A stretch of 37,410 nucleotides of DNA from Flavobacteriales bacterium (GTDB lineage Bacteria > Bacteroidota > Bacteroidia > UBA10329), in the NCBI GenBank assembly GCA_018402015.1, contig JAGYJL010000022.1, positions 1 through 37,410 of the forward strand. Direction: 5' to 3'. The translations under genes and the position numbers were made by a program. Below the pieces are notes generated by a model, which saw only the letters and a program-made list of their open reading frames with translations, was not told where the DNA came from and ran no database searches. Each line of letters opens with the position of its first letter. Position 1 is the first letter of the stretch. This document shows, piece by piece, positions 2,647-26,882 of the stretch.

Positions 2647-3786
2647 ATGAAATTCGGAACCAAAGCAGTACACGCTGGTGTTGAACCAGATCCGTCCACA
2701 GGCGCAATCATGACGCCCATTTACCAAACATCAACTTACGTGCAGGCAGCGCCTGGCGATCATAAAGGATACGAGTATTCTCGAACTGGAAATCCAACAC
2801 GGAATGCGTTGGAAAAAGCCATTGCCGAGTTGGAAAATGGAAACTACGGTGCTTGTTTTGGTAGTGGAATGGCTGCTATTGACTGCGTTATCAAAATGCT
2901 GAAACCAGGCGATGAGGTGATAAGCACGAACGATCTTTATGGCGGAACCTACCGTCTGTTCACGAAGATCTATGAAGGTTTTGGAGTGAAATTCCATTTC
3001 GTACCGATGGGCGATCTGCAAACGGTGAAAGCCAAGGTGAATGCCAACACCAAACTCATTTGGGTAGAAACGCCTACCAATCCGATGATGAACATCATTG
3101 ATATTGAAGCCATGTCGAAGATCGCGAAAGCGGCTGGAGCGCTTTTGGCGGTCGACAATACATTTGCTACACCAGCACTTCAGCAACCGCTTGATCTTGG
3201 TGCCGATATCGTGATGCACTCGGTAACGAAATACTTGGGTGGTCATTCAGATGTGGTGATGGGCGCCTTGGTTGTGAAAGACAAAGCTCTTTCAGAACGG
3301 ATGTACTTCATTCAGAATAGCAGCGGAGCCGTTTGCGGACCGATGGACAGCTTCTTGGTGCTACGCGGATTGAAAACGCTTTCCATTAGGATGAAGCAGC
3401 ATTGTATCAACGGAAAAGAAATTGCCCATTGGCTGAAGGATCATCCAAAAGTGGACAAAGTCTATTGGCCAGGTTTTGAAACGCATCCGAACCATGAGGT
3501 TGCCAAAAAACAGATGAGTGGTTTTGGAGGAATGGTTTCTTTTACTTTGAAGGAAAACACCATCGCGGCAGCAACCAAAGTGCTTTCGAACACACATCTT
3601 TTTGCGTTGGCAGAAAGTCTGGGTGGTGTGGAATCGTTGATCGGTCATCCGGCCAGTATGACCCACGCTTCCATCCCAAAAGAAGAAAGAGAGATAACAG
3701 GCGTGGTCGATTCATTGATCCGTCTTAGCATCGGAATTGAGGATGCGGAAGACCTGATTGCCGATCTGAACAAAGCTTTGGATTAA
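2647..3786 (+). CDS. Trans-sulfuration PLP enzyme (cystathionine gamma-synthase / gamma-lyase type)
   Basis: A 379-residue protein of the Cys/Met metabolism PLP family, full length for the group. Visible motifs are the N-terminal YEYSRTGNPTR, the cofactor-phosphate loop GSGMAAID, the VDNTFATP segment with the ring-binding Asp, and the Schiff-base lysine in SVTKYLGGHSD (Lys195). The C-terminal ESLIGHPASMTHAS and LIRLSIGIED blocks are canonical. The chemistry is gamma-replacement or gamma-elimination on homoserine esters or cystathionine in methionine/cysteine metabolism. Sequence alone does not separate synthase (MetB) from lyase (MetC/CGL), so no symbol is given. It is divergent from the deiodinase-like gene and monocistronic. 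Confidence 0.93.
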   Translation: MKFGTKAVHAGVEPDPSTGAIMTPIYQTSTYVQAAPGDHKGYEYSRTGNPTRNALEKAIAELENGNYGACFGSGMAAIDCVIKMLKPGDEVISTNDLYGGTYRLFTKIYEGFGVKFHFVPMGDLQTVKAKVNANTKLIWVETPTNPMMNIIDIEAMSKIAKAAGALLAVDNTFATPALQQPLDLGADIVMHSVTKYLGGHSDVVMGALVVKDKALSERMYFIQNSSGAVCGPMDSFLVLRGLKTLSIRMKQHCINGKEIAHWLKDHPKVDKVYWPGFETHPNHEVAKKQMSGFGGMVSFTLKENTIAAATKVLSNTHLFALAESLGGVESLIGHPASMTHASIPKEEREITGVVDSLIRLSIGIEDAEDLIADLNKALD

Positions 3787-15700: not shown

Positions 15701-15728
15701 AAACGCCCACTCGTAAGAGCAGGCGTTT
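15701..15728 (-). terminator. Terminator of the stranded atpG 3' end
   Basis: AAACGCC (15701-15707) pairs with GGCGTTT (15722-15728); an inner CTC/GAG pairing closes a GTAA loop. The T-run is on the minus strand (A-rich 15693-15703), so it terminates minus-strand transcription. The only minus-strand coding trace upstream is the atpG C-terminal fragment at 15752-15793, 23 bases away, which makes this the probable original end of the atp operon. Confidence 0.7.
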
Positions 15729-15751
15729 GTAGGTGTCTTGGTTGATTAATT

Positions 15752-15793
15752 CTATCCTTCTTCCAGCGCAGCCGCTCCACCAACAATTTCGAG
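15752..15793 (-). pseudogene. Stranded 3' end of atpG (ATP synthase gamma C-terminus)
   Basis: Fourteen codons on the minus strand read LEIVGGAAALEEG then a stop. This matches the conserved AtpG C-terminus (E. coli ends TEIVSGAAAV). The frame is closed by a TAG six codons further upstream, so nothing expresses it. Its plus-strand sequence 15753-15776 matches 21632-21655 at 20 of 24 positions; the latter is the out-of-frame end still joined to atpG. The fragment has the same orientation as atpG and a minus-strand terminator behind it, as expected of a native operon end cut off by about 5.8 kb of intervening DNA. Confidence 0.72.
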
Positions 15794-15828
15794 TTGATAG
15801 TAAATAGTGAATCCCTAAGACGTTGAAC

Positions 15829-15836
15829 TATCTTTG
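15829..15836 (+). promoter_or_regulatory. Bacteroidota -7 box (TAtcTTTG) of the Crp-like gene
   Basis: An exact TAnnTTTG match 17 bases before the ATG at 15853. It covers codons of the longer frame that opens at 15823 and so supports 15853 as the start. No TTG at 19-23 bases upstream. Confidence 0.45.
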
Positions 15837-15852
15837 GTGCAACACCTATTTT

Positions 15853-16434
15853 ATGCTGAAAGAACTGAAAGAATTTCTTGCTGAGTTTAGTTTTCTAAGG
15901 CCTGCGGATATCAAGGCTTTGGTGAGTGCCTGCAGTGTGCAGCGTTTCAACAAGGGAACAACCATTTTGAAAAGCGGAGATATAGACCGCAATATGTACT
16001 TGGTTGTGAAGGGTGTAACTAGAACATACGTTGTGCGTGAAGATGGAGAAGAAAGAACCGTTTTTCTAGCGAGTGCTGGCGCGGGTTTCGGCTCATCAAA
16101 AACCATATATAAAGACCTGCCGAGCAATGAGAATGTAATGGCACTGGAAAACTGCATGGTCCTTGTTTGGGATTTTCCTGCGTTTAAAAAGGCGTGCGAG
16201 AACCAACCGAACCTGTATAGGTTATATAGCACCATGCTGGAGCGTAGCTTTATTGAAGCGGTGGAACGATTGGAGTTTCACAGCGTTCTGAACCCAGATC
16301 AACGCTACGAATATCTTTTAAAGGAACGCCCAGAAATTCTGGAAAGAGTTCCGCTCAAATACGTTGCCTCATACATTGGCATTACTCCTGTTTCGCTATC
16401 GCGATTACGAGCTAGGTTGGTGCGACCTAAGTAA
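15853..16434 (+). CDS. Crp/Fnr-family transcription regulator
   Basis: A 193-residue regulator; the ATG at 15853 is preferred over an in-frame ATG ten codons earlier, which lies within the promoter. Residues about 10-115 form the cyclic-nucleotide-binding-like beta roll (FNKGTTILKSGDIDRNMYLVVKGVTRTYV). A helix-turn-helix ends the protein (KYVASYIGITPVSLSRLRARL). The phosphate-binding cassette is not canonical: the segment FGSSKTIYKDLPSNENVMALE lacks the GEL and Arg-Ser/Thr-Ala pattern that binds cAMP, as in many Bacteroidota members, so the ligand is uncertain. A 14-bp perfect palindrome lies in the gap to the fibre gene downstream. A class III cyclase lies 3.6 kb downstream on the same strand, which makes a cAMP link tempting but unproven. 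Confidence 0.9.
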   Translation: MLKELKEFLAEFSFLRPADIKALVSACSVQRFNKGTTILKSGDIDRNMYLVVKGVTRTYVVREDGEERTVFLASAGAGFGSSKTIYKDLPSNENVMALENCMVLVWDFPAFKKACENQPNLYRLYSTMLERSFIEAVERLEFHSVLNPDQRYEYLLKERPEILERVPLKYVASYIGITPVSLSRLRARLVRPK

Positions 16435-16458
16435 TTCACACGTAAAAGTGAAATAATA

Positions 16459-16472
16459 TTAGCGTACGCTAA
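16459..16472. promoter_or_regulatory. Perfect 14-bp palindrome, candidate operator
   Basis: TTAGCGTACGCTAA is identical to its reverse complement and lies between the Crp-like gene and the fibre gene, 55 bases before the fibre start. A looser TTCAC-8-GTGAA inverted repeat stands just upstream at the Crp stop codon. A dimeric regulator such as the neighbouring Crp-like protein could bind here. The stem is too short and the following T-run too weak for a good terminator. Confidence 0.45.
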
Positions 16473-16526
16473 CGTCTTTTGGGGTTTGCGGTTAGGAGTT
16501 TTGTGGCTCACATTTTCCATCCCATT

Positions 16527-19500
16527 ATGAAAACTCGTATCACTGTGGCTCTCGCAGCCATTTTCACCCTTTTTCTTTCTTCGGCCAACCTATTTGGTCA
16601 GCAGGGCGCTGGTGTTGGTATTGATGTTACCAATCCACTTGAGAAGCTGGACGTCAATGGCGCCATCAAAATCGGCACAGACATAAACAACTCCAATGCT
16701 GCCCCAACGGGTGGTGCTGGCACCATCCGTTTTAAGGCGGGGGCATTCCAAGGTTGGGATGGAACCTCTTGGATCCCGCTGGGTGGTGGTGCCGACAGTG
16801 ATTGGACCATAAACGGAAATAATCAGTATTCGGCTGTAAGCGGAAACGTTGGTATAGGCGTTACCAACCCGACCGACAAACTACAGGTAAACGGTAGAGC
16901 ACGTTTTCTGAATGACGACCTGATCCTGACCAATAATGCGCAAAGCTTCATACTCCGTGCAAATGAAGGAAGCAACTACATTCAGTTAGATGTAGGCGGT
17001 GGTGGACATGCCTCCGACAACTTCTATATAGGAGACCTTACCACGGCAAATAATGAAGTATATATGATGGGTGCAGTGGGTATTGGAAACGATAACCCTG
17101 GAGAAAAGCTGGATGTAACAGGTTCCATCAGAATGCAAGATGGTAACCAAGCAGCAGGTTTCATACCCGTTTCTGATGCCAACGGAACCATGACATGGAC
17201 CGACCCGGCAACCATTACCACTGCCAGCGATGACGATTGGGCAACCACGGGAAATAACATTTCAAATGCCAACACAGGAAACGTGGGTGTCGGAACCGCT
17301 ACACCAGATAGACTTCTAAATATTGAATCGGCCACAGGACCGCAAATGCTTTTTACACGGAATGACAACAGCACCACGGATGGCGAACTGATGGGAGAAT
17401 TGCTGTTTGATAATAATGACGACACAGCACCATCTTCTGTTGATGCAGCCGTAGTGATAAGAGCCAATGCATCTGGCAACCAGGGTAATAGTAACAAAGG
17501 CGGTTCATTGAGCATCCTTACAAAGAACAATGCGAATGGTTCTGCCAATGCAACCGAACGCATGCGTATTGCAGCCAACGGTAATGTCGGTATAGGAACA
17601 ACTACACCTGCGCAGAAACTGGACGTTGCTGGTAAGATACAGATGCAAACAGGTGCCACGGCAGGTTTCATTCCTGTTTCAGATGCCAATGGAACCATGA
17701 CATGGACCAATCCAACAACAATCACGACAGCGGCAGATGGAGACGGAAGTTCTACAAACGAGCTTCAAACGCTCAGCCAAACAGGAACCAATGTAACGCT
17801 TAGCAATGGCGGAGGAACCATATCTGTTGCTGATAACGACAATAGCGTGTCCAATGAGTTACAGACGCTGAACATAAGCGGAAACGACATTACACTTAGT
17901 AATGGCGGTGGTACTATTTCTATTCCTGATGATGCCGATTGGACCATCAATGGAAACGACATTCACAATGCCAATACTGGAAACGTAGGTATCGGAATTG
18001 CCACACCTAACTACGAGATGGGTATACATGATCCTACCAACGCCAATACTTGGCTTCAGTTCACCCATTCGGCATCAGGAACAACCCCTGGAGACGGATT
18101 TATTATTGGGTTGGATGGTAACTCGGATGCCAAGTTACTTCTGCGCGAAAATCAGAATATGATCTTCAGTACCAACAATACGGAGCGAATGCGGGTTACT
18201 GAGACCGGCAAGGTTGGTATTAATAGCGCAAACCCTTTCGCTCATTTACATATTTATAATCCGGTTGGTCTTACTGACGCCAGTACGGTTGACCAATACA
18301 GTATGCTTTTTGAAAGTGACGCCAGTGAGCACACGGGCATAGGGTTCATCAGCTATTTGAACAACGACCCAACAAAAACCCCGGGCGCTGCCATTGTCTA
18401 CGACCCGTTCAGCAACATTGCAAGTAGAGGCTGGCTTCGATTTAAAACAATTAAACCAAACAACGCATCTTCTCCACTTTCAACAACCATGGTGCTTGAC
18501 GAAAGGGGGTATGTAGGGATAGGGACGGATGACCCATTAACTTCGTTACATGTGTATAGAGACACAGTTGCGTCAGACGATGGCAGGGTGAGAAGTTACC
18601 AGATGGTTTTGGGAGGACGGTCTGCTGTTGGTTCCGAAACAGGGCTGGCTTTCGTTGGAAACCCACAATCTTTAGGTGCCAGTCCAGGCGTTGCTATCAC
18701 GTACGAAGTAGAAGGTTCCTTTAGCAGTGATTATGGTAAGCTTCATTTCAAAACGAAGTCAGCTGCAACAACTACCAGTAGTACACCATTGGTAAAAAGA
18801 ATGACCATAGCCCGAGATGGTAACGTGGGTATTGGTACTACAAACCCAGCGCAGTTGTTAGATGTGCAAGGTTCCATACAGATGGCGGATGGTAATCAAC
18901 AGACAGGTTACATCCCTGTTTCAGATGCCAATGGCACTATGGTTTGGACCGACCCGACAACGATTGCCACAGATGACGATTGGACGGTGAGTGGCAATGA
19001 CATTTACAATGCCAATACTGGAAACGTAGGTGTGGGAACGGCTAATCCAACATCTAAGTTTGAAGTGAATGGGGATATTGAAATTTCGGGTTCTCGGTTG
19101 CATGTAGGCAGCAATGGAAATGTAGGTGTCGGCACATCATCTCCGTCCTCCAAATTGGAAGTAGATGGAGACATTGAAATATCTGGCTCTCGTTTGCATG
19201 TTAACAGCAACGGCAATGTAGGTGTCGGCACATCATCGCCCTCATCCAAGTTTGAGGTGAATGGTGATGTGGAGATATCGGGTTCTCGGTTGCATGTGGG
19301 GAGCAACGATAGGGTAGGTATTGGAACGGCATCGCCAAGCAATCCGCTTGAGGTAAATGGAGGAGCATCTGGCGATAACAGCTATGTTGTGAATATTGAA
19401 AACACTCAAACTGATGCCTCCAATTCAACCAGGTATAACGGCATGCGAATAGAAGCTGGTAAAACGTCTAATAACAATGCTGATTCGCGAATGATATCCT

Positions 19501-19901
19501 TTATCAGGCCTGATAACACCTTTATAGGGTCTATATTTCAGAATAACGCAAGTACGGTCAACTACAGCACCTCTTCTGACATACGTCTTAAAAAGAACAT
19601 ACAACCAACCCATTTCTCGCTTAATGACCTAATGGCTATTGAGGTGAAAGATTATGCATATAAGACCGACCCAGAGGAGATACCAATGACGGGCTTTTTG
19701 GCGCAACAGCTTCATTCTGTATATCCCATTTCTGTACACGAAGGAGGAGAAGATCCTATAGAAGACCCTTGGATGGTTGATTATGGCCAGGTAACCCCGC
19801 TATTGGTAAAGGCGGTGCAAGACCTGAAAGCCGAGAAAGACCAATTGGAAACACTTGTAGAAACCCTTCTGCAACGTGTAGAACAATTGGAGCAGCATTA
19901 A
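16527..19901 (+). CDS. Secreted tail-fibre-like protein with S74 intramolecular chaperone domain
   Basis: A 1124-residue protein. The ATG at 16527 starts a signal peptide (MKTRITVALAAIFTLFLSSA, cleaved near LFGQ); the frame extends upstream only to a TTG. The body is built of recurring GNVGIGTTNPxxKLDVxG units joined by DDWTISGNDIYNANTG-type strands, a beta-rich, presumably trimeric fibre. A tandem set of 32-residue units lies at 19020-19361. The C-terminal S74 domain begins at SDIRLKKN: Ser1017 and Lys1022 match the self-cleavage residues of the endosialidase chaperone. It ends in GFLAQQL, PWMVDYGQVTPLLVKAVQDL and a final coiled coil. No T9SS sorting domain is present. In phages this domain trimerises and is shed; a surface fibre role is inferred here. 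Confidence 0.88.
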   Translation: MKTRITVALAAIFTLFLSSANLFGQQGAGVGIDVTNPLEKLDVNGAIKIGTDINNSNAAPTGGAGTIRFKAGAFQGWDGTSWIPLGGGADSDWTINGNNQYSAVSGNVGIGVTNPTDKLQVNGRARFLNDDLILTNNAQSFILRANEGSNYIQLDVGGGGHASDNFYIGDLTTANNEVYMMGAVGIGNDNPGEKLDVTGSIRMQDGNQAAGFIPVSDANGTMTWTDPATITTASDDDWATTGNNISNANTGNVGVGTATPDRLLNIESATGPQMLFTRNDNSTTDGELMGELLFDNNDDTAPSSVDAAVVIRANASGNQGNSNKGGSLSILTKNNANGSANATERMRIAANGNVGIGTTTPAQKLDVAGKIQMQTGATAGFIPVSDANGTMTWTNPTTITTAADGDGSSTNELQTLSQTGTNVTLSNGGGTISVADNDNSVSNELQTLNISGNDITLSNGGGTISIPDDADWTINGNDIHNANTGNVGIGIATPNYEMGIHDPTNANTWLQFTHSASGTTPGDGFIIGLDGNSDAKLLLRENQNMIFSTNNTERMRVTETGKVGINSANPFAHLHIYNPVGLTDASTVDQYSMLFESDASEHTGIGFISYLNNDPTKTPGAAIVYDPFSNIASRGWLRFKTIKPNNASSPLSTTMVLDERGYVGIGTDDPLTSLHVYRDTVASDDGRVRSYQMVLGGRSAVGSETGLAFVGNPQSLGASPGVAITYEVEGSFSSDYGKLHFKTKSAATTTSSTPLVKRMTIARDGNVGIGTTNPAQLLDVQGSIQMADGNQQTGYIPVSDANGTMVWTDPTTIATDDDWTVSGNDIYNANTGNVGVGTANPTSKFEVNGDIEISGSRLHVGSNGNVGVGTSSPSSKLEVDGDIEISGSRLHVNSNGNVGVGTSSPSSKFEVNGDVEISGSRLHVGSNDRVGIGTASPSNPLEVNGGASGDNSYVVNIENTQTDASNSTRYNGMRIEAGKTSNNNADSRMISFIRPDNTFIGSIFQNNASTVNYSTSSDIRLKKNIQPTHFSLNDLMAIEVKDYAYKTDPEEIPMTGFLAQQLHSVYPISVHEGGEDPIEDPWMVDYGQVTPLLVKAVQDLKAEKDQLETLVETLLQRVEQLEQH
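19020..19361 (+). repeat. Three and a half 96-bp tandem repeats inside the fibre gene
   Basis: Units at 19020-19115, 19116-19211 and 19212-19307, with a partial fourth to about 19361. Each encodes 32 residues of the form GNVGVGTSSPSSKxEVxGDIEISGSRLHVxSN. The copies differ at many third positions, so this is not a fresh expansion. The repeat can change fibre length in steps of 32 residues. Confidence 0.9.
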
Positions 19902-19923
19902 TCTACATCCAGACCAAATACAA

Positions 19924-19955
19924 AAAGCCCCGCCAACTGGCTGGGCTTTCTTTTG
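19924..19955 (+). terminator. Terminator of the fibre gene
   Basis: AAAGCCC, an unpaired C, then GCC pair with GGC, T, GGGCTTT around an AACT loop, followed by CTTTT, 22 bases after the stop. A near-identical hairpin occurs behind the fibre-gene remnant at 21580-21607. Confidence 0.87.
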
Positions 19956-20061
19956 TGATGAAACAGCGAAGAAATAAAAGCTAACCTTCCGATTCAGCAC
20001 GAACACCGTTATCTGCAATGGACTATCTTCGACATTGCGCTGGAAAGAATAGGCGAAACGT

Positions 20062-20652
20062 TTGGAAACACATCAGAATAGGCTAACGCTTGCTTTCAGA
20101 AATAAGGAACTTGAGCATGCGTATAGGGCGGATCAGGAGGAGTTTCTGAGAACGGCTGTGCGGTCTGGTATGATATCTTCTTTGTTCATTTGGTCCGTTG
20201 GTGTTGTAGCCCTTTATTTCATCGTACCTGACAAGTTCCAGATGCTGGCCGCAACCATTATTGGCTCCACATTCCCGTATTTTCTGTTCCTGATATATGC
20301 TACGTACCTAGAACGGTTTCAAGGCTGGTTTCACCTACTTGCCGCTTCTTCTAATCTATTGGCAGGGCTTTTATTGCTGGTCATCTTTTTCCATCTGCAA
20401 GTAAGCGAATACGCCATCCTAACAGCGCTCATCTTTCTGGTCTTCTTCGGGCTCTATTCATATCGGTTCAGGTGGCGGTCTGGTCTGGCACTGGCATCTC
20501 TGTATATGGCGTGCTTTCAGTTTTATATTTCGTTCGTTTCGGGTGCAACGGGTGGAGATTACATATTGATGACCTTTTACGCATGGTCAACCGTAGGACT
20601 TTCGTTGGTTGCTGGACGCATGGTAGAAGCCAATGATCGGCTGGCTTTGTGA
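20062..20652 (+). CDS. Adenylate cyclase, membrane N-terminal part (frameshifted gene)
   Basis: A 196-residue frame holding about six hydrophobic helices (for example IWSVGVVALYFIV, IIGSTFPYFLFLIYATYL, LLAGLLLLVIFFHL, ILTALIFLVFFGLYSY). This is the membrane half of a Bacteroidota-type class III cyclase. No ATG opens it: the frame starts at a TTG (20062) just after an in-frame TAG, and the first internal ATG would remove part of the conserved N-terminus. It ends early at a TGA after ANDRLAL. The continuing coiled coil and catalytic domain lie in the +1 frame from 20633. Removing one base near 20648 would join them as ANDRLACERVTIEEQ. Either the gene is broken or the sequence carries an indel error. 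Confidence 0.75.
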   Translation: METHQNRLTLAFRNKELEHAYRADQEEFLRTAVRSGMISSLFIWSVGVVALYFIVPDKFQMLAATIIGSTFPYFLFLIYATYLERFQGWFHLLAASSNLLAGLLLLVIFFHLQVSEYAILTALIFLVFFGLYSYRFRWRSGLALASLYMACFQFYISFVSGATGGDYILMTFYAWSTVGLSLVAGRMVEANDRLAL

Positions 20653-21340
20653 ACGAGTTACGATTGAGGAACAGAAGAAACAAGTTCAGCAAGCAAAAGA
20701 ACAGGCAGACAGCTTATTACTCAATATCCTTCCTAAGAAGGTGGCCGAAGAACTGAAAACCAAAGGTTCGGCCGAAGCCGTGCACTATGATCAGGTAACC
20801 GTTCTTTTTACCGATTTCAAAGGCTTTACGGCAATGAGCGAGAAAATCACACCCAAAGAACTTGTAAAAGACCTTCATGAATGCTTCTCTGCCTTTGATA
20901 GAATTTGCGAAAAGTATGGCGTAGAAAAAATAAAGACCATTGGTGATGCTTACATGGCAGCTGGTGGTGTACCTGGCCAAAATAAAACGCACGCGGCTGA
21001 TGTGGTTAAAGCTGCATTCGAGTTCCGAGATTTCGTAGAAGAGGGTAAGGCTCGAAAAATAAAAGCAGGATTACCATTCTTCGAGATAAGAATAGGCATT
21101 CACACAGGCCCCGTAGTAGCAGGTATTGTAGGCGTTAAGAAATTCCAATATGACATTTGGGGAGATACCGTAAACACCGCCAGCCGTATGGAATCATCTG
21201 GTGAGGTTGGCAAAGTGAACATCAGCGAAAGCACCTATGCGCTTCTGAAAGACGATGCCTCATTCAGCTTTGAGAACCGTGGTAAAATACAGGCTAAGGG
21301 CAAAGGAGAGATGGAGATGTATTTTGTGCAAGAAGGATGA
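20633..21340 (+). CDS. Class III adenylate cyclase, catalytic part (frameshifted gene)
   Basis: A 235-residue frame. A coiled-coil linker (IEEQKKQVQQAKEQADSLLLNILP) leads into a complete class III cyclase domain. FTDFKGFTAMSEK carries the first metal Asp and KTIGDAYMAAGG the second. NTASRMES gives the Asn and Arg of the transition state. Substrate choice reads as ATP: Lys in EKIKTIGDAY and Asp in YDIWGDTVN are the adenylate-type pair. The ATG at 20633 overlaps the end of the membrane part by 20 bases in another frame and is unlikely to be the natural start of the intact gene. If translated alone it would give a soluble catalytic domain. Confidence 0.85.
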   Translation: MIGWLCERVTIEEQKKQVQQAKEQADSLLLNILPKKVAEELKTKGSAEAVHYDQVTVLFTDFKGFTAMSEKITPKELVKDLHECFSAFDRICEKYGVEKIKTIGDAYMAAGGVPGQNKTHAADVVKAAFEFRDFVEEGKARKIKAGLPFFEIRIGIHTGPVVAGIVGVKKFQYDIWGDTVNTASRMESSGEVGKVNISESTYALLKDDASFSFENRGKIQAKGKGEMEMYFVQEG

Positions 21341-21383
21341 CCTGTCCGAGTTGAAATTCAGACTACCGGTTTTTGAGCATTAA

Positions 21384-21560
21384 GAAAATGCCGTAAGCGT
21401 GGGTGGCGATGATGCCAAAACCGACCCTTGGATGATGGACTACGGCAAAATGTCGCCATTGTTGGTACAAGCGATTCAGGACCTGAAGGCTGAGAAAGAC
21501 CAATTGGAAACACTTGTAGAAACCCTTCTACAACGCGTAGAACAATTGGAGCAGCATTGA
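21384..21560 (+). pseudogene. Remnant of a second S74 fibre gene (C-terminal 58 codons)
   Basis: The frame runs ENAVSVGGDDAKTDPWMMDYGKM and on to SPLLVQAIQDLKAEKDQLE and the final coiled coil VEQLEQH-stop. The last 27 residues (DLKAEK onward) are identical to those of the intact fibre protein. It lacks a start, the fibre body and the catalytic Ser-Asp-Ile-Arg-Leu-Lys segment, and an in-frame TAA lies directly upstream. Its terminator is conserved too. It is the 3' end of a lost paralogue, or a duplicated end, lying antisense under the extended atpG frame. Confidence 0.88.
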
Positions 21561-22495
21561 TCTGCACCCAAACCAAACAAAAAGCCCCGCCAACTGGCAG
21601 GGCTTTTCAATTGTCTTAAACCGAGTTTGATTATCCGTCTTCCAAAGCAGCTGCTGTAACTGTTCAAAATTTCGTTGGTAATGGAAGCTTGACGCGCCTT
21701 GTTGTAAGATAGTTTCAATGCTTTCAAAATGTCTGAAGCGTTGTCTGTTGCCTTGTGCATGGCCGTCATTCGAGCTCCGTGCTCAGAAGCATGGCTATCA
21801 AGCGTTGCAGCATACAATTGCGTTTTCAACGAACGAGGAATAAGGTCAGCAACGATCTCGGCCTTGGCAGGTTCAAAGATGTAATCTGTTGCAGACGTGT
21901 TTTCAGTTACTTCTGGTGGCGCAACAGGCAAGAACTGCTCGGCAACACACAATTGCGTAGCGGCATTCTTAAACTGATTGTAAACCACATCCACACGGTC
22001 GTACTTTCCTTCAACAAACGCGTCCATGATGCTTTCAGCAATGGGAGCGATGACATCGAAGGTCAAGCTGTCGTAAACACTATCGTGACGTTCAATGACA
22101 TTGAAGTTTCTACGCTTCAAGAATTCGCCTGATTTCTTTCCGATGGAAAGAACATCAATTTCCTTTCCTGCGTAAACGCCATTGGCCAAACTCAACACCT
22201 TCTTATTGATGTTTGAGTTGAAACCACCGCACAATCCACGATTGGAGGAAACAGCTACGATAAGCACTTTCTCAATCGGACGCTCGGTAGAATATGCTCC
22301 GCCTTCAGAAGAGTCTAAGCTTGCGCTTAGGTTGGCAAGAATCTCTGACAATTTACTGGCATACGGACGCATACGTGTGATTGCATCTTGCGCTCTACGC
22401 AATTTTGCAGCGGACACCATCTTCATGGCAGAGGTGATCTGCATGGTAGAACCGATGGATGTAATCCTTTCGCGTACTTCTTTTAATCCAGCCAT
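21476..22495 (-). CDS. atpG: ATP synthase F1 subunit gamma, C-terminus frameshifted
   Basis: The central rotor stalk of F1. Residues 1-277 are normal AtpG: MAGLKEVRERITSIGSTMQITSAMKMVSAAKLRRAQ at the start, SSNRGLCGGFNSN, and MTAMHKATDNASDILKALKLSYNKARQASITNEIL near the end. After Leu277 the frame leaves the family. It runs 62 codons to 21476, antisense through a terminator and the fibre remnant. The expected ending (VTAAALEDG-stop, 21631-21660) is present but in another frame; deleting one base near 21661 would give a normal protein of about 288 residues. A second AtpG-like ending is stranded at 15752-15793. The gene follows atpA across a 118-base gap containing a large hairpin repeat. Confidence 0.9.
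   Translation of the reverse strand: MAGLKEVRERITSIGSTMQITSAMKMVSAAKLRRAQDAITRMRPYASKLSEILANLSASLDSSEGGAYSTERPIEKVLIVAVSSNRGLCGGFNSNINKKVLSLANGVYAGKEIDVLSIGKKSGEFLKRRNFNVIERHDSVYDSLTFDVIAPIAESIMDAFVEGKYDRVDVVYNQFKNAATQLCVAEQFLPVAPPEVTENTSATDYIFEPAKAEIVADLIPRSLKTQLYAATLDSHASEHGARMTAMHKATDNASDILKALKLSYNKARQASITNEILNSYSSCFGRRIIKLGLRQLKSPASWRGFLFGLGADQCCSNCSTRCRRVSTSVSNWSFSAFRS
21580..21607. terminator. Bidirectional terminator between the fibre remnant and atpG
   Basis: AAAGCCC-C-GCC and GGC-A-GGGCTTT pair around AACT, flanked by A-rich sequence on one side and TTTT on the other, so it can work on both strands. It lies 24 bases beyond the out-of-frame atpG stop at 21631 on the minus strand. The extended atpG frame would have to be transcribed through it. 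Confidence 0.8.
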
Positions 22496-22508
22496 TTTCG
22501 ATAGTTAG

Positions 22509-22599
22509 TTCTCGATACGATTGTCGTTCCTCCAATCACTCGAAATGACAACTAGGGTCACTTCGAGTAACTCTGACGAAGGAAGAATTGTATCGAGAA
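22509..22599. repeat. 91-base imperfect palindrome between atpA and atpG
   Basis: TTCTCGATACGATT (22509-22522) pairs with AATTGTATCGAGAA (22586-22599) at 13 of 14 positions. Inside it, CACTCGAAATGAC pairs with GTCACTTCGAGTA at 11 of 13. The wording (TCGAGAA arms, GTCATTTCGAG core) resembles the REP-like palindromes scattered between genes in many Bacteroidota. Lying inside the operon, it could form a large hairpin in the mRNA and alter expression of atpG relative to atpA. Confidence 0.85.
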
Positions 22600-22613
22600 G
22601 TCGCATTAGTTGA

Positions 22614-24188
22614 TTAGTATTTTCCTGCCAAGTCAGCGGCAACTTTTTCCAATGTATCGGTGATCTCGTCAGTCAGTTTACCTGCTTTCAATCCATCAAG
22701 AACATCACGGTGCTTTGCGTCCATGTAATCCAAGAATTCCGTTTCGAAAGCTCTCACTTTCTCTACAGGAACTTTTCTCAAAAGACCTTTTGATCCAAGA
22801 TAGATGATGGCAACTTGCTTCTCAACAGAAACAGGAGCGTACTGTCCTTGCTTCAAGATCTCCACGTTACGTTTTCCTTTTTCAAGAACGTTCATGGTAG
22901 CAGCATCAAGGTCAGAACCGAATTTGGCAAATGCCTCAAGCTCACGGTACTGTGCTTGGTCAAGCTTCAATGTACCTGCAACTTTCTTCATCGACTTGAT
23001 CTGAGCCGATCCACCAACACGCGATACCGAAATACCTACGTTGATTGCTGGACGAACACCAGAGTTGAACAAGTTCGACTCCAAGAAGATCTGACCATCC
23101 GTAATCGAAATTACGTTGGTTGGGATGTATGCAGAAACGTCACCCGCTTGTGTTTCGATAATTGGAAGTGCAGTCAAAGAACCACCACCTTTCACTTTGT
23201 CTTTCAAAGAAGGAGGAAGGTCGTTCATGTTCTTCGCAACTTCATCATCGTTGATCACCTTGGCAGCGCGCTCTAGCAGACGGCTGTGTAGGTAGAAAAC
23301 GTCTCCCGGGTAAGCCTCACGACCTGGAGGTCTTCTCAAAAGAAGAGATACCTCACGGTAAGCAACGGCTTGTTTCGATAAGTCATCATAAATGATCAAT
23401 GCTGGACGACCAGTATCACGGAAATATTCTCCGATGGCAGCACCTGAGAATGGAGCGTAAAACTGAAGTGGAGCTGGATCAGAAGCTGTTGCAGCAACAA
23501 CAACCGTGTAGGCCATTGCACCTGCGTCTTCCAATGTTTTCACGATTCCAGCAACAGTAGAACCTTTTTGTCCGATAGCAACATAGATACAGAATACAGG
23601 CTCGCCTCTGTCGTAAAATTCTTTTTGGTTGATGATGGTATCGATCGTCACAGCAGTTTTACCTGTCTGACGGTCACCAATGATAAGCTCACGTTGTCCA
23701 CGACCAATTGGAATCATCGCATCGATTGCTTTGATACCTGTTTGAAGTGGCTCAGTTACCGGCTGACGGAACACAACACCTGGTGCTTTACGCTCCAATG
23801 GCATTTCGAAAAGTTCTCCTGAGATAGGTCCTTTACCATCAATTGGCTCACCCAACGTGTTCACAACACGACCTAGAAGACCTTCTCCTACTTGAATGGA
23901 AGCAATCTTTCCAGTACGCTTTGCAGTAGAACCTTCAGCAATACCGCTTGAAGAACCAAGCAATACCGCACCAACGTTGTCCTCTTCCAAGTTCAAGATG
24001 ATACCTCGTGTACCTCCGTCAAATTCGATAAGCTCACCAGCTTGAACGTTTGAAAGACCGTAAATACGAGCAATACCATCACCCACTTGGAGTACGGTAC
24101 CTACTTCTTCCAGTTCAGCTTCGCTTTTGTAGCCTGAGAGTTGTTCTCTTAAAATACCTGAGATCTCTGCTGGTTTGATGTCTGCCAT
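22614..24188 (-). CDS. atpA: ATP synthase F1 subunit alpha
   Basis: A 524-residue protein, the normal length. It contains the P-loop [10 protein letters not shown] near residue 170, a Walker B-type strand [12 protein letters not shown], and the [13 protein letters not shown] block with the conserved Ser-Arg. The N-terminal [14 protein letters not shown] is the usual delta-binding segment. It forms the non-catalytic nucleotide sites of the F1 hexamer. Genes for beta and epsilon are not in this cluster, as is common in Bacteroidota, where atpDC sits elsewhere. The gene is 35 bases after atpH. Confidence 0.98.
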
Positions 24189-24223
24189 TTTATTAGTGTT
24201 TGTTCGGAATCGCTTCCGCTTAA

Positions 24224-24781
24224 TTAAATTCCTTTAGCAAATGATTTATTCATGAATTCTTGGCGTAGGTCACCGATCTTACTCAAGATCGAAGTGTCCA
24301 ATTGTTTGTCGCCAATGCGGAGTATGAATCCTCCAATAAGTTCCGGATTGATCTCTGTTTCAAGTTCAACCGTTCCACCAACTTCTTTCTGAACAAGGTC
24401 AGTGATTTTCTTCTTCGCATCGTCAGCCAGAACCGAAGCCGAAGTAACAACCGCAGTTGTAATTCCTTTCATCGCCTTGTATTGCGCCACAAACGCATCA
24501 GCAATTTCTGGAAGTGCCCCCTCTCTTCTGTTCTTGGTAATAAGTGCAATGAAAAGCATGGTCACTTTACTCACATTCTTCTCATAGATGCTGGTCAGAA
24601 TGCTCACCTTTTTCTCTGTGTTCACCACAGGACTTTTGAGTAGAACAACCAGGTCGCGATTTTCAGAACAGGTCTTTTTGATCAACATCATGTCGTTGAA
24701 AGCCTCTTCCAGATTTCCCTTCTCGGCCACAAGTCCAAGGAGCGATTTCGCGTATCGTGTTGCAACCTTTGTCTGAGCCAT
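24224..24781 (-). CDS. atpH: ATP synthase F1 subunit delta (OSCP)
   Basis: A 185-residue OSCP/delta protein. The six-helix N-terminal domain starts at [17 protein letters not shown]. The C-terminal domain ends in the conserved [26 protein letters not shown] and a short LRQEF tail. It joins the top of F1 to the peripheral stalk. The start is one base after the stop of atpF, so the two are probably translationally coupled. Confidence 0.96.
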
Positions 24782-24782
24782 T

Positions 24783-25277
24783 TTAGTTCAGCTTGATGTC
24801 TTCAAGTAGATTATCAACAAGTTGTTTCTGCTTTGCAGCATCACCCAACTCAGCTTTCAGAATCTTCTCTGCAATTTCAATTGAAAGTGCAGCAACATGA
24901 TTCTTGATCTCAGCCATTGCAGCTGTTTTCTCTGTTTCAATGCTCTCACGAGCGTCAGCCACGATTTTCTCAGCTTTCGCTTTCGCATCTCCTTCAGCGT
25001 CAGCAATCAGTTTTTCACGGATCTCCTTCGCATCCTTCAGCATGTTGTCGCGCTCTTCGCGTGCTTCTTTCAGGATCTGCTCATTATCAGACTGAAGTTT
25101 TTGCATTTCAGCCTTGGCATGTTCAGCCGATTTCAACGCGTTGGAGATGTTCTCCTCTCGCTCTTTGATCGTTTCAAGAATGGCTGGCCATGCAAATTTG
25201 CCCAATCCCACCCAAACAATAAGGAAGGCTATGGTCATCCAAATGATGAGGCCTATTCCAGGAGTTACTAATCCCAT
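24783..25277 (-). CDS. atpF: ATP synthase Fo subunit b
   Basis: A 164-residue stator subunit. A single N-terminal membrane helix (GLIIWMTIAFLIVWVGLGKFAW, about 8-29) includes the usual Pro-Ala-Ile-Leu exit. The rest is a long charged coiled coil (KEREENISNALKSAEHAKAEMQ, then Ala/Glu/Lys-rich heptads) that dimerises as the peripheral stalk and binds delta. Length and layout are standard. It lies 90 bases after atpE and directly before atpH. Confidence 0.96.
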   Translation of the reverse strand: MGLVTPGIGLIIWMTIAFLIVWVGLGKFAWPAILETIKEREENISNALKSAEHAKAEMQKLQSDNEQILKEAREERDNMLKDAKEIREKLIADAEGDAKAKAEKIVADARESIETEKTAAMAEIKNHVAALSIEIAEKILKAELGDAAKQKQLVDNLLEDIKLN

Positions 25278-25367
25278 TTCTGTGTGTTTTTCTAATTCAG
25301 ATCAATTTGTGGAATCCCACGGTGCTGACCAACCGTCAGCACCGGGATTCCGAACCCTTTATTCGTC

Positions 25368-25619
<252 letters not shown>

Positions 25620-25655
25620 TTATTATTGTTTTGGGTTAATTGATTACTGATTTGA

Positions 25656-26882
25656 TTAATGATGTTCCTCCACTGCGCTACCGAAATAGAGAGCAGAAAG
25701 AAGTGTGAATACGTATGCCTGAAGGAATGCTACGAGCAATTCCATTACGTTCATGAAAACTCCGAAAAGCAACGATACGATTGATGCTCCATAACCTGCA
25801 CCAGCACCATAGATATCGGCAAAGATGAAGATGAGACTCATGAATGACAGAATGATAATGTGACCAGCAGTGATGTTGGCAAACAATCGAAGGCAAAGTA
25901 CCAATGGCTTGGTGAAGACGCCTAAAAGCTCGATCGGAATCATCAATGGCAACAACCATCCTGGAACACCAGGTGTTGCAAAAATATGACCCCAATAAGT
26001 TTTGTTTCCATTTACTGTGGTCATTACAAAGGTGAACAATGCCAATACCATCGTTACTGCAATGTTTCCAGTAACGTTGAATCCTCCAATGAATGGAATA
26101 AGACCTAGGATGTTGGCGATCCAAATAAAGAAGAAGATGGTAAGCAAGAATGGCATGAAACGCTCGTACTTGTGCCCGATAGATGGTTTTGCAATTTCGT
26201 CTCTGATGAAAAGAATAATCGTTTCCATGAGCGCCTGAAATCCTTTAGGTGCTTCGTTAGAACCTTCTCGTTTATATGCACCTGCAACTTTGCTGAAGAT
26301 GATGAACATTAGCAAAACAGTGATCAGAATTCCAGCTACGGTCTTAGTAATGGAAAGATCTATGAATGCACCATTTTCGCCTCTGAATACTCCGCCCCAA
26401 CTTTGCTCCGAATATCCCATGCTCATAGCTTCTTCCAAGTGAATTTCTTCTGAAGAAGCAAATGGATTGTTCAAGCCTAGACGATAGATATGTCCATGGT
26501 TCAATACATAACGGTTTTTGGCAGCATGTCCGTGATGAAAGCTAGAGGAAAGAAACACACTCAATCCATCTTCGGTACTGTAAAGTATTACTGGCAAAGG
26601 AATGCTAACGGAATGACCGCCAATATCCATCAAGTGAATATCGTACGCATCCATTACGTGGTGCATGATCATATCACCAGCATTAAAAGCTTCAGCTTCG
26701 TGTTCAGAATGGTCGGTCGCATGGGCCGAAGCTTCCTCGTTTACACCATGCTGATGAGTAGAATCCTCGGCATGAACATCATAATCTTCCGAAGCCAACA
26801 AACTTCCTGATGTTAAAAAGGCAAGGGAAATAAGAAGGAAAAACGGCTTGAAAGCCTTGTGTGGTCTATGTTTCAGCATCAT
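25656..26882 (-). CDS. atpB: ATP synthase Fo subunit a with His-rich N-terminal extension
   Basis: About 408 residues from the ATG at 26882. A longer frame to 26951 exists, but the promoter at 26920-26951 lies in it. A signal-peptide-like helix (FFLLISLAFLTSGSLLAS) is followed by about 40 residues rich in His, Glu and Asp, then the canonical subunit a. The essential half-channel Arg is in LRLFANITAGH, and PLMIPIELLGVFTKPL is typical. The exported acidic/His-rich extension is seen in other Bacteroidota AtpB proteins and is not in E. coli. The subunit forms the proton path with the c ring. Alternative start: the adjacent ATG at 26879. Confidence 0.94.
   Translation of the reverse strand: MMLKHRPHKAFKPFFLLISLAFLTSGSLLASEDYDVHAEDSTHQHGVNEEASAHATDHSEHEAEAFNAGDMIMHHVMDAYDIHLMDIGGHSVSIPLPVILYSTEDGLSVFLSSSFHHGHAAKNRYVLNHGHIYRLGLNNPFASSEEIHLEEAMSMGYSEQSWGGVFRGENGAFIDLSITKTVAGILITVLLMFIIFSKVAGAYKREGSNEAPKGFQALMETIILFIRDEIAKPSIGHKYERFMPFLLTIFFFIWIANILGLIPFIGGFNVTGNIAVTMVLALFTFVMTTVNGNKTYWGHIFATPGVPGWLLPLMIPIELLGVFTKPLVLCLRLFANITAGHIIILSFMSLIFIFADIYGAGAGYGASIVSLLFGVFMNVMELLVAFLQAYVFTLLSALYFGSAVEEHH

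What the first reader, a model, noticed from the sequence alone, without database searches (positions are those of the whole stretch)
15752..21660. Two atpG 3' ends flank a 5.8-kb regulator-fibre-cyclase island
The minus strand carries LEIVGGAAALEEG-stop at 15752-15793 with an operon-type terminator behind it, and VTAAALEDG-stop at 21631-21660 directly behind the body of atpG. The DNA matches at 20 of 24 positions (15753-15776 against 21632-21655) in the same orientation. A gene 3' end displaced to the far side of foreign DNA and replaced by a similar one is the signature of elements that target conserved gene 3' ends. The interval contains only plus-strand cargo genes (Crp-like, S74 fibre, cyclase, fibre remnant) and no recombinase, so it may be a decayed or non-autonomous element. 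An alternative is an assembly join of two strains.
Basis: partly seen in the sequence, partly recalled or inferred. Interest (0 to 1): 0.75.

Follow-up and report, generated by a model that had tools for sequence, protein, structure and literature searches.

The report
Foreign gene block splits atpG's end
In one uncultured Bacteroidota genome a 5.9-kb block of surface-fibre and signalling genes sits inside the last codons of the ATP-synthase gamma gene, pushing the gene's own end far away and putting a foreign, out-of-frame end in its place, with no recognisable integrase.

Summary
LEIVGGAAALEEG-stop at 15752-15793(-) is a perfect atpG 3' end (14/14; rest of window and 20 shuffles at most 7). 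All 7 same-genus relatives with an atpG match have this end uninterrupted; in G003 the two window pieces abut with a 1-nt gap. So about 15794-21667 is an insertion at NEI|LEIV with no visible target loss. The second end, AAALEDG-stop at 21631-21654, is also an atpG end: in 395 class genomes its pattern hits only the window and another genome's atpG end, and its five differences from the displaced end all lie at degenerate positions (p=0.003). But it is out of frame; the ORF runs 62 codons past NEIL. No recombinase, common core, terminal repeats or target duplication were recognised. The cargo is chromosome-like: Crp, S74 fibre and cyclase relatives stand together at other loci of the genus. 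Best reading: 3'-end displacement by one-sided homologous capture of DNA from a related chromosome, now decaying. Site-specific integration and an assembly join are not excluded. Separately, the atp operon was probably exchanged with the G003 lineage.

The parts
21668..22495 (-). atpG body up to codon NEI; 91-98% identical to G003 except near the start of the gene and its spacer
21631..21660 (-). foreign atpG-type 3' end VTAAALEDG-stop, out of frame with the body
21476..22495 (-). atpG open reading frame as assembled (339 codons), running 62 codons past NEIL
21578..21609 (-). terminator-like hairpin behind the foreign end; nearly the same 30 nt stand behind the first fibre gene
15794..21667 (.). 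inserted block (ends uncertain by a few nt)
   Evidence: absent between the two atpG pieces in G003
15853..16434 (+). Crp-type regulator (cNMP_binding); an upstream TTG at 15823 is an alternative start
16479..19901 (+). S74 (endosialidase-chaperone) fibre; ATG at 16527 is an alternative start
20062..21340 (+). cyclase in two overlapping frames (20062-20652 without a Pfam match, 20633-21340 Guanylate_cyc), probably one frame-shifted gene
21393..21583 (+). 3' remnant of a second fibre gene
   Evidence: 79% identical to 19734-19924
15752..15793 (-). displaced resident atpG 3' end LEIVGGAAALEEG-stop
15701..15728 (-). terminator-like hairpin behind the displaced end

Best explanation
A 5.9-kb piece of chromosome from a related bacterium was inserted into the 3' end of atpG between codons NEI and LEIV. 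It carried Crp, an S74 surface fibre, a cyclase, a fibre 3' end, a terminator and the last codons of that bacterium's atpG. The most likely route is one-sided: the donor's atpG end paired with the resident atpG (homologous anchor), and the other end, just upstream of crp, was joined illegitimately at the resident tail (homology-facilitated illegitimate recombination). The resident tail and its terminator were thereby displaced 5.9 kb downstream, as in the C-terminal displacement described for rhs genes. Shown: empty site in relatives, precise split of the resident gene, atpG-type second end, broken frame as assembled. Inferred: the donor, the anchor, the illegitimate join, and that the frame break arose at or after the join.
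For: Empty site: window 15741-15793 and 21669-22495 align to adjacent stretches of G003 (L031 15329-15379 and 15381-16207). 7 of 8 same-genus relatives have an AtpG match (G001 has none) and all 7 read LEIVGGAAALEEG, LEIVGGAAALEKG or LEIVGGAAALEG then stop, uninterrupted. The island's end is of atpG type: in 395 class genomes the AAALEDG* pattern hits only the window and the atpG 3' end of G053. Its 5 differences from the displaced end all fall at the 9 degenerate positions of 24 (p=0.003), so it looks like a once-working coding end, not a decayed duplicate. A short spacer and a terminator-like hairpin follow it, the layout of a native gene end. The cargo looks like this genus's own chromosome: island GC 0.459 against 0.44-0.46 in the flanks; Crp relatives next to S74 fibre and/or cyclase genes at other loci in G008, G007, G003 and G002. 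No integrase among the island's genes; the 3 PF00589 matches of the genome lie on other contigs. Mechanism class: passages of PMC5361080 and abstract of PMC3240628.
Against: One-sided joining usually loses resident DNA (recalled); here nothing is lost and both joins fall at the same point, which better suits a single-site event. No Crp/fibre/cyclase block directly behind atpG was found in 117 sequences (about 109 distinct loci, 29 of the sequences with only about 1.5 kb of flank), so the donor is hypothetical. The frame break in an essential gene is unexplained and may signal a sequence or assembly error. The recognisable part of the foreign end is only 7 codons plus stop.
Confidence: 0.42

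Rival explanations
1. Site-specific integration: a circular, non-autonomous element with an atpG 3' end as attachment site integrated by one crossover (as e14 does at icd, recalled), with the recombinase supplied in trans or lost.
For: Both joins fall at the same codon boundary with no visible loss of target, and two direct tail copies flank the block, as a Campbell-type crossover predicts. The carried end shows a coding-constraint signature.
Against: No integrase among the island's genes; no common core recognised by eye; no long inverted repeat at the two ends; the carried end does not restore the frame; no convincing second atpG end in 77 readable flavobacterial loci; AtpG and both tail patterns gave nothing in viral contigs, nor did Crp and the cyclase N-terminal part.
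Confidence: 0.2
2. Assembly artefact: reads of two co-occurring species were joined at conserved atpG sequence, and the frame break marks the bad join.
For: The window is a contig of a fragmented, 83% complete assembly (208 contigs). The frame of an essential gene breaks at the join. Similarity to G003 drops close to the join: 5 differences in the last 60 bp of the body, 4 in the 340 bp before (p=0.005; the 60-bp bound was among those printed, so it is partly chosen after the fact).
Against: Two separate chimeric joins would have to hit complementary ends of one gene, the tail resuming where the body stops. GC is alike inside and outside. The displaced tail is followed by a terminator-like hairpin and by the M43 gene that also follows atpG in G003 and G006.
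Confidence: 0.25
3. The island entered together with the atp operon in one block replacement from a G003-like donor; the tail at 15752 is what was left of the resident atpG.
For: From 21669 to 26468, 10 of 12 steps of 400 bp are 91-98% identical to G003; from 26869 on the steps are 72-84%, and aligned pieces left of the island 66-79%. dS to G003 is 0.15-0.43 in atpG to atpB against 0.76 to saturated in the flanking genes measured, except metB (0.44).
Against: The G003-like tract seems to end about 60 bp inside atpG: last 60 bp plus displaced tail have 10 differences in 102 nt, the 340 bp before have 4 (p=0.0001). G003 itself has no island and a normal tail.
Confidence: 0.1

Closest known systems
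3'-end (C-terminal) displacement, perhaps by homology-facilitated illegitimate recombination, as proposed for Vibrio T6SS effector modules and, cited there, rhs genes (PMC5361080, passages)
   Same: Conserved upstream part kept, new DNA with new downstream genes inserted, older 3' part left displaced downstream, no integrase known.
   Different: Here the target is a housekeeping gene with one match in the genome, the new end is out of frame, and no resident DNA was visibly lost.
Elements that integrate in the 3' end of protein-coding genes and carry a replacement end, e.g. e14 / phage 21 at icd (recalled; the one paper search for it failed)
   Same: Gene end displaced to the far side of the insert and replaced by a diverged copy in the same orientation.
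   Different: No integrase, no recognised common core, the replacement end does not restore the frame, no second case found.
Crp / S74 fibre / cyclase neighbourhoods of the same genus
   Same: Same kinds of genes side by side: Crp with fibre in G008:C24, G007:C11 and G008:C12 (the last also with a cyclase further along), Crp with cyclase in G003:C17 and G002:C73.
   Different: Crp only 36-45% identical; these loci are not at atpG; the three of them tested (L074, L075, L078) and a cyclase locus (L090) show no duplicated gene end.

Membership tests
3'-end-targeting integrative element (icd/e14 type; definition recalled) | Uninterrupted target gene in relatives | tested here: met
   7 of 7 same-genus genomes with an AtpG match (8 relatives in all)
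3'-end-targeting integrative element (icd/e14 type; definition recalled) | Carried end restores the gene in frame | tested here: not met
   ORF runs from NEIL into NSYSSCFGRR..., stop at 21476. Not met as assembled; a sequence error is possible
3'-end-targeting integrative element (icd/e14 type; definition recalled) | Recombinase gene in or next to the element | tested here: not met
   Pfam on the four island ORFs gives cNMP_binding, S74, Guanylate_cyc and one without a match; 3 PF00589 matches in the genome, all on other contigs
3'-end-targeting integrative element (icd/e14 type; definition recalled) | Identical core at both junctions | tested here: inconclusive
   By eye: no common core at the join points; CGAAATT occurs near both, but both copies belong to the resident gene. 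A diverged core cannot be excluded
3'-end displacement by homology-facilitated illegitimate recombination | Homologous anchor on one side | tested here: inconclusive
   Foreign atpG-type end of 7 codons plus stop; similarity to G003 drops about 60 bp inside the body; donor unknown
3'-end displacement by homology-facilitated illegitimate recombination | Old 3' end retained downstream of the new DNA | tested here: met
   15752-15793 plus hairpin 15728-15701
3'-end displacement by homology-facilitated illegitimate recombination | Non-homologous join on the other side | tested here: met
   Window from 15794 on has no BLASTN match in the atpG loci of the 7 relatives until 21623-21669
Assembly chimera | No single read or molecule spans the joins | not testable with these tools
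   No reads available

The most novel reading that the evidence does not exclude
The atpG 3' end is an attachment site for small, integrase-less cargo islands of Bacteroidota that bring their own atpG tail and are moved in trans; here such an island also rewrote the gamma subunit's C-terminus, giving a living cell a gamma subunit with a 62-residue non-homologous tail.
Probability: 0.1. Interest if true: 0.7.

Novelty: new variant of a known kind. Interest (0 to 1): 0.42.

Why it matters
In what I saw, 3'-end displacement is discussed for toxin and effector loci. A clear case in an essential housekeeping gene would show that recombination between related chromosomes can add kilobases of surface and signalling genes behind conserved operons without a mobile element, and leave a fossil, the displaced gene end, by which such events can be found. 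If the frame break is real, it is also a natural test of how much of the ATP-synthase gamma C-terminus can be replaced.

Tried and rejected
Chance similarity of the two ends: rejected. Decayed target duplication as the source of the second end: disfavoured, since all 5 differences sit at degenerate positions. Hotspot survey: genome-contig scan returned the best 80 of 575 relatives; 77 had a readable tail (L110, L126, L154 did not); within the up to 10 kb held downstream two regex hits (L129, L158) came up and neither resembles AtpG. AtpG in viral contigs: none of 36 stretches. Tail patterns in viral contigs: 0 and 0. Tail duplication at other modules: L074, L075, L078, L090 score 16-17 of 24, shuffles 15-19 (the L079 row is a self-match and says nothing). 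Crp/fibre/cyclase directly behind atpG: none in 117 sequences; two distant hits, a Crp in L108 and a cyclase in L033. Island DNA as a query: apart from itself only fibre and cyclase similarity and one 32-nt match in the own genome, no second copy of the block in 20 genomes. Crp in plasmids (81 records) and phages (8 records): all under 60% identity. Fibre in phages: 62 records, all under 60%, none covering 80%. Cyclase N-terminal part: no match in the other 58 genomes. rpoB as a conserved control failed: the window's genome and G002 have no match. Papers: 0 papers; 2, seen as a listing and unrelated by title and abstract; others (5 papers, listing; 0 papers) gave nothing used; listing led to the two papers.

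Full report
What is there. The window is contig C124 of a 208-contig, 83% complete assembly; close hits in named collections are Bacteroidota. On the minus strand atpG runs from 22495 to codon NEI, ending at 21668. Seven of the eight same-genus genomes have an AtpG match, and in all seven the gene continues LEIVGGAAALEEG, LEIVGGAAALEKG or LEIVGGAAALEG and stops. In the window the next codons are unrelated in frame; LEIVGGAAALEEG-stop and a terminator-like hairpin appear 5.9 kb further on, at 15752-15793 and 15728-15701. Against G003, the nearest relative by AtpG (97%), the two pieces lie side by side with a 1-nt gap, and the M43 gene that follows in the window also follows in G003 and G006. 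So about 15794-21667 is an insertion that split atpG after NEI without visible loss.

The second end. Directly behind NEI(L) comes a sequence whose last 24 nt read AAALEDG-stop in another frame. It is not chance: the pattern hits 2 of 395 class genomes, the window and G053, and the G053 hit is that genome's own atpG end. In the 9 genomes of the order only the window has it. Its 5 differences from the displaced end are all at the 9 degenerate positions of 24, p=0.003, so it was probably a working coding end in another lineage. A spacer and a terminator-like hairpin follow. As assembled it is out of frame, and atpG reads on 62 codons beyond NEIL to a stop at 21476. Whether cells carry this frame break, or the assembly is wrong there, cannot be told without reads.

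The cargo. Plus strand: a Crp-type regulator (cNMP_binding, 15853-16434), an S74 fibre (16479-19901), a cyclase lying in two overlapping frames (20062-20652 without a Pfam match; 20633-21340 Guanylate_cyc), and the last 191 nt of a second fibre, 79% identical to the first fibre's end, with a terminator stretch 97% identical over 30 nt. No recombinase. GC equals the surroundings. Elsewhere in the genus Crp relatives (36-45% identical) stand next to S74 fibres (G008:C24 and G007:C11, by Pfam; G008:C12, by DNA match, with a cyclase further along) or next to cyclases (G003:C17, G002:C73). A cyclase, a cyclic-nucleotide-binding regulator and a surface fibre may form a sensing-and-adhesion unit; that function is inference. 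The cyclase's N-terminal part has no match in the other 58 genomes searched, so that the two frames were once one gene is also inference. The split cyclase, the truncated fibre and the frame-broken atpG end suggest decay.

How it got there. Three facts bear on mechanism: the target is preserved; an atpG-type end travels with the block; nothing enzymatic is visible. A one-sided capture, anchored in the atpG end and joined illegitimately beyond crp, explains the foreign end and the lack of an integrase, and has a proposed precedent in displaced 3' regions of T6SS effector and rhs loci (PMC5361080, passages seen; process described in the abstract of PMC3240628). A site-specific crossover explains the exact target better but lacks enzyme, recognisable core and in-frame repair, and no second case was found. 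An assembly join would need two errors at complementary ends of one gene, but stays possible without reads.

A second event next door. From 21669 to 26468, 10 of 12 steps of 400 bp are 91-98% identical to G003; the exceptions are 22469-22868 (73%, start of atpG and the atpG-atpA spacer) and 26069-26468 (89.5%). The next step is 86%, and from 26869 on the steps are 72-84%; aligned pieces left of the island, other than the 53-nt tail piece (87%), are 66-79%. At an unrelated locus G003, G004 and G006 are about equally far from the window's genome (77, 76, 74%; 76, 75, 73% for the best matches). dS to G003 is 0.15-0.43 in atpG to atpB but 0.76 to saturated in the flanking genes measured, except metB at 0.44. 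This points to exchange of the operon between lineages. Close to the island the G003-like tract fades: 5 differences in the last 60 bp of the body against 4 in the 340 bp before (p=0.005), and 5 in the 42-nt displaced tail, which is equally far from G004 (5). So island and operon exchange look like separate events, though the 60-bp bound was chosen among those printed. Strong conservation of atp genes weakens but does not remove the inference, since G004 is more distant in the same genes (dS 0.41-1.87).

Verdict. Observation confirmed, insertion well supported, mechanism open. Ordinary cargo in an unusual place, with a foreign, frame-broken gene end that deserves a read-level check before more is made of it.

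Noticed in passing
window 21669-26468: The atp operon is 91-98% identical to G003 in 10 of 12 steps of 400 bp while its flanks are far less alike: probable exchange of the whole operon between lineages.
   Followed up: partly
window 2647-3786: The metB-like gene also has low dS to G003 (0.44) among saturated neighbours, perhaps another exchanged tract.
   Followed up: no
window 20062-21340: Cyclase lies in two overlapping frames; its N-terminal part has no match in the other 58 genomes searched.
   Followed up: partly
L033 3780-4397: In G006 a cyclase-like stretch lies between the nitroreductase and metB matches of the same neighbourhood, where the window has only about 90 bp between the genes.
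   Followed up: no
L083 4510-11594: Three cyclase-domain genes within 7.1 kb in G005:C7.
   Followed up: no
window 19734-19949 and 21393-21606: The two fibre 3' ends (79%) and their terminator stretches (97% over 30 nt) are alike, suggesting duplication followed by loss of the second fibre's body.
   Followed up: partly
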